The position numbers and the translations under genes are program-made. From positions 1 to 20,366 of the IMG/VR virus record IMGVR_UViG_3300046327_000047: DNA of 20,366 nt; one strand, written 5' to 3'. This document shows positions 6,446 through 17,007 of this stretch, one piece after another. Source of the DNA: a virus. The notes beneath the pieces are model-generated. The model saw only the letters and a program-made list of their open reading frames with translations, searched no databases and was not told the origin of the DNA. The first letter of the stretch is position 1. Every line of letters begins with the position of its first letter.

Positions 6446-6658
6446 ATGGCTAAGTACACGACGTGCAAAGATATGGACGGTGTAGTTAATGCCTTGGTGA
6501 AAAAAGGATGGGTGTTCTCGCGCAATACACATGGGCGGCTCACTCATCCTAGCGGGAAGTACATCACTTTCAGCATGACACCGAGCGACAGTTACGCATA
6601 CAAACAATTGGCGCGTGACGTTAAGAGGTTACTTAAACAACTAGGAGAAGCATCATGA
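6446..6658 (+). CDS. HicA-like small protein (orphan), dsRBD-type fold
   Basis: The product is 70 residues. The sequence KKGWVFSRNTHGRLTHPSGKYITFSMTPSD followed by a C-terminal helix (LARDVKRLLKQLG) matches the HicA/YcfA layout: alpha, then three strands, with a His in the loop (H29, and H34). HicA toxins cut mRNA and use such a histidine; their antitoxin HicB is normally encoded next door. No HicB-like protein is visible here, and the next gene is a metallopeptidase. In phages, orphan relatives are common and their role is open. The start ATG has a G-rich but atypical ribosome site (GGGGGGCGCT). The gene is 11 bases after the polymerase. Confidence 0.65.
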   Translation: MAKYTTCKDMDGVVNALVKKGWVFSRNTHGRLTHPSGKYITFSMTPSDSYAYKQLARDVKRLLKQLGEAS

Positions 6659-12182: not shown

Positions 12183-12415
12183 CAAAGAAGATGACACCCG
12201 CAGAACTCGCAGAGTTGCCCGTCATGGTTGACACCGTGACTAAGACAGACGACGACAAAGCCTACGAACGTGCGCAAGACGCCATCTACTCTCGCCGCCG
12301 CTCACTTGAAGCCGCGATCGAGCACCACAAAACCAACGGCGGCATGCTCACAGTAGCCCAGTTGATCGACAACTCAAAAACATTCCACGCTTACATCACA
12401 GGAGAACAAGCATGA
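12179..12415 (+). CDS. Small charged protein, unknown function
   Basis: The product is 78 residues, starting in an ATGA overlap with an AGGA before it. The first 30 residues are polar (MTKKMTPAELAELPVMVDTV). The middle is a helix rich in Arg and Ala (AYERAQDAIYSRRRSLEAAIEHH), and the end (MLTVAQLIDNSKTFHAYI) is another short helix. No motif is recognised. It overlaps the next gene in ATGA, so it is likely produced together with the SSB-like protein. Confidence 0.55.
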   Translation: MTKKMTPAELAELPVMVDTVTKTDDDKAYERAQDAIYSRRRSLEAAIEHHKTNGGMLTVAQLIDNSKTFHAYITGEQA

Positions 12416-13383
12416 GCAACGTAGCAGTATTTAACCCCGCAGCCGTACCCGCCTTCGTCAAGGCACGCGGCGAATTGTCCGCAGTAGCTAAAGCCCTCGC
12501 CGGTGGCGCAGGTGGTGGCGGCAAGCGCATCTCAATCAAGGGCGGCGTGTTCCGTCTGGTGGCTGGTGGCAAAGAAGTCGCCGCTATCGAAGAACGCTAC
12601 CTCGACGTGGTGGTTGTGAACTCAGCCCCTAAAGTCAGCCGCGTGTTCTACATGGCCAAGTACGAAGCCGACAAAGTTGTTGCACCAGAGTGCTGGTCAC
12701 AAGACGGCGACAAGCCAGCGTCAGAAGTCGAGACACCTCAAGCCACGACCTGCGCCGAGTGCCCACAAAACATCGCGGGTTCAGGCAACGGTAACAGCCG
12801 CGCATGCCGCTACCAACAACGTCTCGCTGTGGTCTTGGCCAATGACATGGAAGGCGATGTGCTCCAGTTGACTCTGCCAGCCACGTCAATCTTCGGTAAG
12901 GAAGAAGGCGACAACCGCCCCCTGCAAGCCTACGCTCGCTGGTTGGTGGCACAGAACATCGACCCCACCGAAGTCGTGACCCGCATGCGCTTCGACACCA
13001 AGTCCGAGTCACCCAAGCTGTTCTTCAAGACCATGCGCTACCTGACCGACGACGAGTACCCAATCTGCACAGAGAAGGGCGCATCCGTTGAAGCCAAGCA
13101 AGCCGTCACCATGACGGTCGCCAAGATGGACAACGTGGCCAAGGTGTCTGAGCCCATCGCCGGTACAAAGCCCAAGGCCGCAGCTAAGCCAGCGCCAACA
13201 CCCGAAGCCGAGGACGACGAGCCACCAGCACCCGCACCAAAAGCTAAGGCCAAGAAAGCCGCCGCACCAGCAGCCGATGCTGACGACGAGCCAGTGGTCC
13301 GCAAGGAAGAAAAGAAGCAGACCGCCGTGCCAGCCCAGAAAGCCAACTTGGCTGACATGGTTGACGATTGGGACGCTGAGTAA
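12412..13383 (+). CDS. SSB-like single-stranded DNA-binding protein with Cys cluster and acidic tail
   Basis: The product is 323 residues. The N-terminal two-thirds contain GGVFRLVAGGKEVAAIEERYLDVVVVN, an OB-like beta region. C94, C114-x2-C117 and C132 (from PEC, CAEC and RACRY) could make a zinc knuckle. A low-complexity Ala/Pro/Lys/Glu tract at about 250-305 follows, and the protein ends with an acidic tail (DMVDDWDAE). Acidic tails of this form are typical of phage and bacterial SSBs, where they recruit partners. I recall close relatives in other phages, annotated hypothetical or ssDNA-binding. I infer the ssDNA role from the tail, position and composition, not from a canonical SSB motif. 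Confidence 0.65.
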   Translation: MSNVAVFNPAAVPAFVKARGELSAVAKALAGGAGGGGKRISIKGGVFRLVAGGKEVAAIEERYLDVVVVNSAPKVSRVFYMAKYEADKVVAPECWSQDGDKPASEVETPQATTCAECPQNIAGSGNGNSRACRYQQRLAVVLANDMEGDVLQLTLPATSIFGKEEGDNRPLQAYARWLVAQNIDPTEVVTRMRFDTKSESPKLFFKTMRYLTDDEYPICTEKGASVEAKQAVTMTVAKMDNVAKVSEPIAGTKPKAAAKPAPTPEAEDDEPPAPAPKAKAKKAAAPAADADDEPVVRKEEKKQTAVPAQKANLADMVDDWDAE

Positions 13384-13454
13384 GGAGTTCGGCCCCTGCG
13401 CTTTCCATTAACTTGGAGCTACAGACCCTGCGCGGGGGCCACCTAATCTATATG
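13382..13454 (+). promoter_or_regulatory. Hairpin-bridged ribosome binding site for the HTH gene
   Basis: A perfect AAGGAG at 13382-13387 overlaps the previous stop but has no start codon within a normal distance. Next come three bases, then an 11-bp stem: 13391-13401 GGCCCCTGCGC with 13430-13440 GCGCGGGGGCC, all paired with one G-U, around a 28-base loop. Eleven bases later is ATG 13452. If the stem forms, the ribosome site is 14 bases from the start instead of 64. The only other purine run before the ATG is in the stem itself. In phage T4 gene 25 a hairpin is known to bring a distant Shine-Dalgarno close to its start codon. Confidence 0.55.
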
Positions 13455-13682
13455 GCCTACTCACAACAAATCATCGACACAGTCAAACACGCGCCGAAGA
13501 CGCTGGGCAACCAGCTCGGGCGCTGGGCTGTGCATCTCGACTTCCCAGTAACCAAGATTGCCAAGGCAACGGGCGCATCGCGTCAGTCGGTCGTCGAGGT
13601 GCTCCTCACAATTTTGAAGTCATCATCAACAGCGGATGATGCGTGGAGAAAAGTATGCAAGCAATTCGACCTACCAACCTGA
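13452..13682 (+). CDS. Helix-turn-helix-like protein, apparently shortened
   Basis: The product is 76 residues from ATG 13452; the TTG at 13413 is inside the hairpin loop and has no site. It begins with a helix (QQIIDTVKHAPKTLGNQLGRW), then AVHLDFPVTKIAKATGASRQSV, the first part of a helix-turn-helix (IAKATG-ASRQSV). It then jumps directly to VEVLLTILKSSSTADDAWRKVCKQFDL, which in relatives follows the recognition helix (about 15 residues such as YNWF-GG-V-P-Y-R-V). So the second HTH helix appears to be missing. The C-terminal WRKVC-FDL matches the family end I remember. A DNA-binding regulator is expected of the family; this copy may have lost it. It overlaps the next gene by 28 bases. Confidence 0.65.
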   Translation: MAYSQQIIDTVKHAPKTLGNQLGRWAVHLDFPVTKIAKATGASRQSVVEVLLTILKSSSTADDAWRKVCKQFDLPT

Positions 13683-16829: not shown

Positions 16830-17007
16830 GAGCTTCTTCGTAGCGGGGCTTGACGTAGCAGGTATTAGGGAGCGCGGACTTACCGCCGCGCTCCCGTACC
16901 GTTACAGAATGAAGGCCACCGTGGGCTTACAGCGCGGCCTTATTGGGGTGCGATTCTGTCGACTGTACGGCGGCTTGCCGAGGCTAGGGAAATCTTCAAA
17001 GCCTTGA
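16789..17007 (+). CDS. 72-residue conserved phage protein (LKPGESFFV type), overlaps convergent gene
   Basis: The ATG at 16789 has a perfect AGGAGG at 16777-16782 and a spacing of six, much better than most genes here. The N-terminus RYPLANLKPGESFFVAGLDV matches short phage proteins I know that open with YP-L-PGESFFV and are of unknown function. The C-terminal part (KATVGLQRGLIGVRFCRLYG) is beta-like. It lies inside the end of the primase gene by 41 bases and its 3' end overlaps the minus-strand giant gene by 68 bases. A 10-bp hairpin lies within it (16868-16895). The strong ribosome site suggests high output. Confidence 0.75.
   Translation: MALRYPLANLKPGESFFVAGLDVAGIRERGLTAALPYRYRMKATVGLQRGLIGVRFCRLYGGLPRLGKSSKP
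16868..16895 (+). promoter_or_regulatory. Perfect 10-bp hairpin inside the last plus-strand gene
   Basis: GGGAGCGCGG (16868-16877) pairs with CCGCGCTCCC (16886-16895) around an 8-base loop. No T-run follows on either strand, so it is not a classical intrinsic terminator. It lies 45 bases before the convergent stop. It may help end converging transcripts or stabilise an mRNA end, or may be a result of coding. Confidence 0.4.

What the first reader, a model, noticed from the sequence alone, without database searches (positions are those of the whole stretch)
13382..13454. Shine-Dalgarno split from its start codon by an 11-bp hairpin
AAGGAG (13382-13387) has no start codon in normal range. An 11-bp, fully paired stem (13391-13401 with 13430-13440, one G-U) lies between it and ATG 13452. 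Folding would reduce the distance from 64 to 14 bases. Gene 25 of T4 is an established example of this type of control. The gene controlled here is a helix-turn-helix-like protein, so its dose could depend on RNA folding or on temperature and translation of the upstream gene.
Basis: partly seen in the sequence, partly recalled or inferred. Interest (0 to 1): 0.6.

Follow-up and report, generated by a model that had tools for sequence, protein, structure and literature searches.

The report
Hairpin-split ribosome site in phages
In a group of uncultured phages (viruses of bacteria), a folded RNA hairpin sits between the ribosome-binding signal and the start of a small gene and probably folds the two together; related phages carry quite different RNA folds at the same place, while the distance left after folding hardly changes.

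Summary
AAGGAG (13382-13387) overlaps the TAA stop of the upstream gene. A fully paired 11-bp stem (13391-13401/13430-13440) follows, then ATG 13452. The spacing is 64 nt linear and 14 nt with the hairpin excised. The stem is the only one of its size in the window (0.05 expected per shuffled window), and its seven-member family shows compensatory changes in 7 of 11 pairs.

In 383 related viral loci the same junction carries RNAs of unrelated sequence and length: UUCG hairpins, GAA/AGUA-loop RNAs, a covarying ~135-nt RNA, and the window's type. None matches Rfam. Linear stop-to-start distance is 28-138 nt (5-95%); after excision it is 11-25 nt. None of 212 distinct upstream contexts has a distant start without a hairpin. 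An SD core lies 5' of the hairpin in about half of the gaps and 3' of it in 3 of 151.

The best explanation is a hairpin-accommodated ribosome site, as in T4 genes 25 and 38, with reinitiation from the upstream gene. Untested: translation itself. Against a purely translational role, similar hairpins follow the upstream gene where the next gene has its own SD. A thermometer is not supported. In this window the HTH protein has lost 17 residues, including its recognition helix.

The parts
12412..13383 (+). Upstream gene, 323 aa, SSB-like by position and acidic WDAE tail (inferred); its TAA stop (13381-13383) overlaps the SD
   Evidence: phrog_27714 6.7e-34, unknown function; hundreds of viral relatives with conserved tail; AF2 model low confidence, no PDB fold match
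13382..13387 (+). AAGGAG, Shine-Dalgarno, split from its start codon
   Evidence: SD core 5' of the hairpin in about half of 151 junctions; GGAG in 33/150 against 6.7 expected by shuffling
13391..13401 (+). 5' arm of the 11-bp closing stem
   Evidence: 7 of 11 pairs with two-sided changes in 7 sequences, 100% paired
13403..13418 (+). Inner 5-bp stem-loop UUCCA/UGGAG
13419..13429 (+). 3' internal loop CUACAGACCCU, shared with other members of the family (GGAGCUACAGACCC was part of the search pattern, so its invariance is partly by construction)
13430..13440 (+). 3' arm of the closing stem
13441..13451 (+). 11-nt single-stranded spacer ACCTAATCTAT between hairpin and start codon
   Evidence: hairpin-to-ATG distance median 9 nt, 10-90% 6-12 nt in relatives
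13452..13682 (+). HTH-like ORF, 76 aa (92 aa in relatives); in-frame deletion of 17 residues at about 13590-13595 removes YNWFAGGEVFVAYRPIV

Best explanation
The hairpin makes an accommodated (split) ribosome binding site that couples two genes. A ribosome finishing the upstream SSB-like gene stops at TAA 13381-13383, exactly over AAGGAG. The 50-nt hairpin stays folded and is looped out, so 16S rRNA paired to AAGGAG sees AUG 13452 about 14 nt away instead of 64, and the small HTH gene is initiated or reinitiated. Shown: the stem, its conservation by compensatory change, the conserved effective spacing across unrelated RNA inserts, and the near absence of any other SD. Inferred: that this SD serves this AUG, that the hairpin stays folded on the ribosome, and that output depends on translation of the upstream gene.
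For: Stem real: z -3.72; 1/5000 shuffles; 11-bp stem 100% paired, 7 pairs with two-sided changes, 18 cells against 6.3 shuffled; slid controls 37-57% paired. Geometry conserved: 151 distinct stop-to-ATG gaps, linear 28-138 nt and hairpin-excised 11-25 nt (5-95%), although the inserts have unrelated sequences. All 212 distinct upstream contexts of the HTH gene either overlap or abut a stop (24, hand-corrected) or are hairpin-bridged (188); none is distant without a hairpin. SD core 5' of the hairpin in 75/151, 3' in 3/151; GGAG 5' of it 33/150 against 6.7 expected. With another gene downstream of the hairpin, that gene usually has its own SD after the hairpin, and GGAG before it is 0 of 18 distinct flanks. 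The SD+hairpin+ATG module also precedes the HTH gene after unrelated upstream genes (L293, L099, L119, L268, L022, L055; L433). Most other window genes have an SD at 3-8 nt. T4 genes 38 (22 to 5 nt) and 25 (27 to 11 nt) are proven precedents (PMC3014915).
Against: About half of the hairpin-bearing junctions have no SD core before the hairpin, so in those the bridge would have to shorten stop-to-start distance rather than SD-to-start distance. Similar hairpins follow the SSB-like gene when the next gene has its own SD (about 20 distinct viral cases; Pseudomonas phage Rollin), so the RNA has some role or history independent of bridging. The Fisher test for GGAG placement is only suggestive (p = 0.07) and ignores relatedness. 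14 nt is longer than the 5-9 nt usually optimal in E. coli (from memory). No expression data.
Confidence: 0.6

Rival explanations
1. The hairpin is mainly a 3' element of the SSB-like gene: it protects or sets the 3' end of an abundant upstream message (block to 3' exonucleases, processing point or weak terminator). The HTH gene merely follows closely and is translated by coupling, and AAGGAG at the stop codon is incidental.
For: Hairpins follow the SSB-like gene in about 20 distinct loci where another gene follows, usually with its own SD, in cultured Pseudomonas phage Rollin (hairpin then CCGGAG) and Rhizobium phage RHph_TM27A. A C-type RNA directly follows an unrelated SSB gene (DUF669, PHROG single strand DNA binding) in L416, where the next gene has its own SD.
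Against: Phages whose stop and start overlap (TAATG) have no such hairpin nearby. In other loci the hairpin sits before the HTH gene and not after the SSB-like gene. 3' flanks lack T-runs in nearly all cases (L016 is an exception), so these are not typical intrinsic terminators. It does not explain the near absence of an SD 3' of the hairpin when HTH follows (3/151).
Confidence: 0.25
2. The hairpin is a specific RNA operator: a protein (the SSB-like protein, the HTH protein or a host factor) or a small molecule binds its conserved loops and switches HTH translation.
For: Conserved unpaired nucleotides in each RNA family (UUAA and GGAGCUACAGACCC in the window type; GAA/AGUA internal loop in the 65-75 nt type; several invariant blocks in the 135-nt type).
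Against: Unrelated RNAs, down to a bare UUCG hairpin, occupy the same site in front of the same gene, so no common recognition element is seen. No Rfam family matches.
Confidence: 0.1
3. RNA thermometer or masking: structure hides the SD or start codon and opens with temperature or with passage of upstream ribosomes.
For: In the 121-nt fold GAGUA-A-GG at the stop/SD can pair with CCUACUC in codons 2-5 of the HTH gene; SD paired about 50%.
Against: The stem does not contain the SD and stays paired from 4 to 65 C. The outer GAGUA/UACUC helix is not maintained: 117 of 313 loci break it, so it most likely follows from codon constraints.
Confidence: 0.03
4. A short leader peptide from CTG 13396 (8 nt after AAGGAG, ending TAA 13444-13446) is translated and hands ribosomes on to ATG 13452.
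For: The frame is open in the window.
Against: CTG starts are rare, and the inserts in relatives share neither sequence, length nor frame.
Confidence: 0.02

Closest known systems
Phage T4 gene 25 (gene 26-25 junction) accommodated ribosome binding site
   Same: SD and start codon separated by an RNA stem at an intercistronic junction; excising the stem gives a usable spacing (27 to 11 nt there, 64 to 14 nt here) (PMC3014915)
   Different: Unrelated genes. Here the SD overlaps the upstream stop, the stem is longer and GC-rich, and relatives carry several unrelated RNA folds at the site; T4 relatives either have the one stem or lack it.
Phage T4 gene 38 translation initiation region
   Same: Structure between SD and AUG cuts the spacing from 22 to 5 nt (PMC3014915)
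   Different: Much smaller insert; replacement by larger structured RNAs is not mentioned there.
Translational coupling of neighbouring genes by termination-reinitiation
   Same: Start codon close to an upstream stop; some relatives have the plain TAATG form. Coupling is most efficient at short intergenic distance and has been seen without an SD (PMC12548453)
   Different: Here the short distance exists only after a hairpin is folded out, an arrangement not described in the parts of that review read here.
Hairpins at phage gene 3' ends (for example the UUCG hairpin after T4 gene 32; from memory, not tested)
   Same: GC-rich UUCG hairpins directly after a replication gene
   Different: No T-run, and a start codon 5-12 nt after the hairpin without its own SD.

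Membership tests
Accommodated (hairpin-split) ribosome binding site, T4 gene 25/38 type | SD too far from the start codon in linear sequence, no other SD in normal range | tested here: met
   64 nt linear; only good anti-SD match near the ATG lies inside the paired 3' arm
Accommodated (hairpin-split) ribosome binding site, T4 gene 25/38 type | Stable stem lies wholly between SD and start and reduces the spacing to a usable one | tested here: met
   14 nt effective; stem p>0.92; T4 gene 25 has 11 nt
Accommodated (hairpin-split) ribosome binding site, T4 gene 25/38 type | Stem conserved in relatives by compensatory change | tested here: met
Accommodated (hairpin-split) ribosome binding site, T4 gene 25/38 type | SD retained 5' of the stem across relatives | tested here: inconclusive
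   75/151 have an SD core, 33/150 GGAG, the rest none
Accommodated (hairpin-split) ribosome binding site, T4 gene 25/38 type | Translation falls when the stem is disrupted and recovers when pairing is restored | not testable with these tools
   needs reporter assays
Intrinsic transcription terminator | GC-rich hairpin followed directly by a T-run | tested here: not met
   3' flank is ACCTAATCTAT; terminator scan does not list it
RNA thermometer | SD or start masked by a structure that melts in the growth range | tested here: not met
   SD outside the stem; stem paired from 4 to 65 C in silico
Known Rfam family | Score above a gathering threshold | tested here: not met

The most novel reading that the evidence does not exclude
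This junction is a natural swap site: many unrelated structured RNAs, 15 to about 140 nt and several of undescribed families, have replaced one another between a stop/SD and a start codon in one phage group, and any of them works because only the geometry matters, so ribosomes routinely initiate or reinitiate across a large folded RNA domain, even without an SD.
Probability: 0.35. Interest if true: 0.75.

Novelty: new variant of a known kind. Interest (0 to 1): 0.55.

Why it matters
Hairpin-bridged initiation rests on very few proven cases, mainly T4 genes 25 and 38. Here a whole phage group supplies more than a hundred natural variants in which RNA sequence, length and architecture change while the flanks stay short, plus natural controls with overlapping stop-start codons or with an SD after the hairpin. 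This makes two open questions directly testable: how large a folded RNA a bacterial ribosome can accommodate between SD and start, and whether termination-reinitiation can step over a folded domain.

Tried and rejected
RNA thermometer: stem does not melt from 4 to 65 C in silico. Outer lock helix GAGUA/UACUC between stop and codons 3-5: broken in 117 of 313 loci. Intrinsic terminator: no T-run. Known RNA family: none in Rfam, the window region also at E up to 10. tRNA in L134 and other long inserts: ARAGORN finds none. CTG leader peptide: not conserved. Ribosome bypassing as in T4 gene 60: considered only; gap lengths fall in all three frames and no take-off/landing pair was noticed. Identity of the upstream protein by fold: AF2 mean pLDDT 49.6 and no PDB match with E<=0.001, so SSB remains an inference. 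A search of 100 loci with the window RNA model found no members beyond those already known. First script to classify upstream contexts returned nothing because of a bad option and was rerun.

Full report
Observation. AAGGAG (13382-13387) overlaps the TAA stop (13381-13383) of a 323-codon gene. The stem 13391-13401/13430-13440 is fully paired with one G-U, and ATG 13452 opens a small ORF. There are 64 nt between SD and ATG, or 14 without the hairpin. The fold of 13360-13480 has z = -3.72 with 0/200 shuffles as stable. The stem is the only one of at least 11 bp with GC>=9 and loop<=60 in the window, against 0.05 per shuffled window, and 1/5000 shuffles of the interval itself gives one. Most other starts examined in the window have an SD match 3-8 nt upstream; this one has its only good match inside the paired 3' arm.

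Setting. The upstream gene lies among replication genes (DNA helicase, a Gp157/Gam-like protein, a DUF927 primase-helicase). Its acidic tail (WDAE) suggests a single-stranded DNA binding protein, but no family or fold confirms this, so 'SSB-like' is an inference. The downstream protein is 92 aa in relatives with a weak HTH match (PF13384, E 0.0013, below its cut-off). In this window it lacks 17 residues, YNWFAGGEVFVAYRPIV, by an in-frame deletion, so its DNA-binding helix is probably gone. The window itself is a virus record.

Relatives. Searches with the upstream protein and with HTH proteins gave 383 viral loci. Where the two genes are adjacent, the gap holds RNAs of unrelated sequence: GGGGGCUUCGGCCCCC-type hairpins; GGGGGGAAAGC...GCGAGUACCCCC types whose GAA/AGUA internal loop looks like a bulged-G (loop E/sarcin-ricin) motif; a 116-143 nt type with invariant blocks; the window type; and others. 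In 151 distinct gaps the linear stop-to-ATG distance is 28-138 nt (5-95%) and the distance outside the largest stem-closed domain is 11-25 nt, median 16, made of about 7 nt before and 9 nt after the hairpin. This narrowness alone is not proof, since an element inserted into a short spacer would give it too.

Structure is real. In the window-type family (7 sequences; the search pattern fixed part of the loop, not the closing stem) the 11 pairs are kept in every sequence and 7 pairs change on both sides, 18 cells against 6.3 in shuffles; slid controls pair 37-57%. In the 116-143 nt type 11 of 26 pairs have two-sided changes, 59 cells against 20.4 in shuffles, and 99% of cells pair. None of the RNAs scanned matches Rfam.

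Link to translation. An SD core lies between stop and hairpin in 75 of 151 gaps and between hairpin and ATG in 3; GGAG occurs 5' of the hairpin in 33 of 150 against 6.7 expected from shuffled flanks. When another gene follows the hairpin, that gene usually carries its own SD after the hairpin, and GGAG before it is seen in 0 of 18 distinct flanks, a list compiled by hand (Fisher p = 0.07, relatedness ignored). When a different gene precedes HTH, the same SD-hairpin-ATG order reappears at that gene's stop (L293, L099, L119, L268, L022, L055; L433). Over 212 distinct contexts, every HTH start either overlaps or abuts a stop codon or is bridged by a hairpin (automatic classes 173 bridged, 32 close, 7 unresolved; reading these by hand moved 8 of the close and all 7 unresolved to bridged, giving 188 and 24).

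Evidence pulling the other way. The hairpin also follows the SSB-like gene where it is not needed for bridging, including a cultured relative, Pseudomonas phage Rollin, where SD CCGGAG lies after the hairpin, and the 135-nt RNA follows an unrelated DUF669 SSB gene in L416 with an independent downstream start. A 3' role for the upstream message is therefore plausible and may be older; bridging could be a later use. Half of the junctions have no SD, so for them the claim is shortened stop-to-start distance, in line with SD-independent coupling reviewed in PMC12548453.

Comparison. T4 genes 38 and 25 are the proven precedents, with spacing reduced from 22 to 5 and from 27 to 11 nt and destabilising mutations lowering initiation (PMC3014915). 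The window site meets the sequence-level criteria of that kind; SD retention across relatives is inconclusive and the functional criterion cannot be tested here. I therefore file it as a new variant of a known kind, likely but unproven. What is new is the replacement of the bridging element by unrelated RNAs at a conserved geometry across one phage group.

Not shown: translation from ATG 13452, use of AAGGAG, dependence on upstream translation, the function of the HTH protein, and whether this window's deleted copy is functional.

Noticed in passing
window 13590-13595: In-frame deletion of 17 codons in the HTH-like gene relative to all relatives, removing the recognition-helix region; a near-identical relative (L002) has the full 92 aa. 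Either a real deletion or an assembly artefact.
   Followed up: partly
L103:1875-2000, L208:1866-2000, L428 and others: Covarying 116-143 nt RNA family with invariant blocks (AGCGGUCGC, CCUCGUUA, ACAUGCACACGA, AGCGUUUCC), not in Rfam, almost always after the SSB-like gene.
   Followed up: partly
L416:2519-2645; L397:1960-2090: The same RNA family outside the usual junction: directly after a DUF669 single-strand DNA binding gene (L416) and before a gene with its own SD (L397).
   Followed up: partly
L185, L145, L092, L111, L042, L427 and others: RNAs closed by GGGGG/CCCCC with a GAAN/NAGUA internal loop resembling a bulged-G (sarcin-ricin/loop E) motif, topped by very different structures.
   Followed up: partly
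L134:1858-2000: Insert contains GTGAGTTCGAATCTCACCAGTG, like a tRNA T-arm; ARAGORN finds no tRNA.
   Followed up: partly
window 16868-16895: 10-bp perfect GC-rich hairpin between convergent gene ends, possible bidirectional end signal without T-run.
   Followed up: no
window 6446-6658: 70-aa ORF with a weak HicA-toxin match (PF07927, E 0.0006, below cut-off) next to the DNA polymerase gene.
   Followed up: no
L196, L198-L202: In these relatives HTH directly follows, with TAATG overlap, a gene ending in a second SSB-like tail about 950 nt after the first, suggesting a duplicated SSB-like gene.
   Followed up: no
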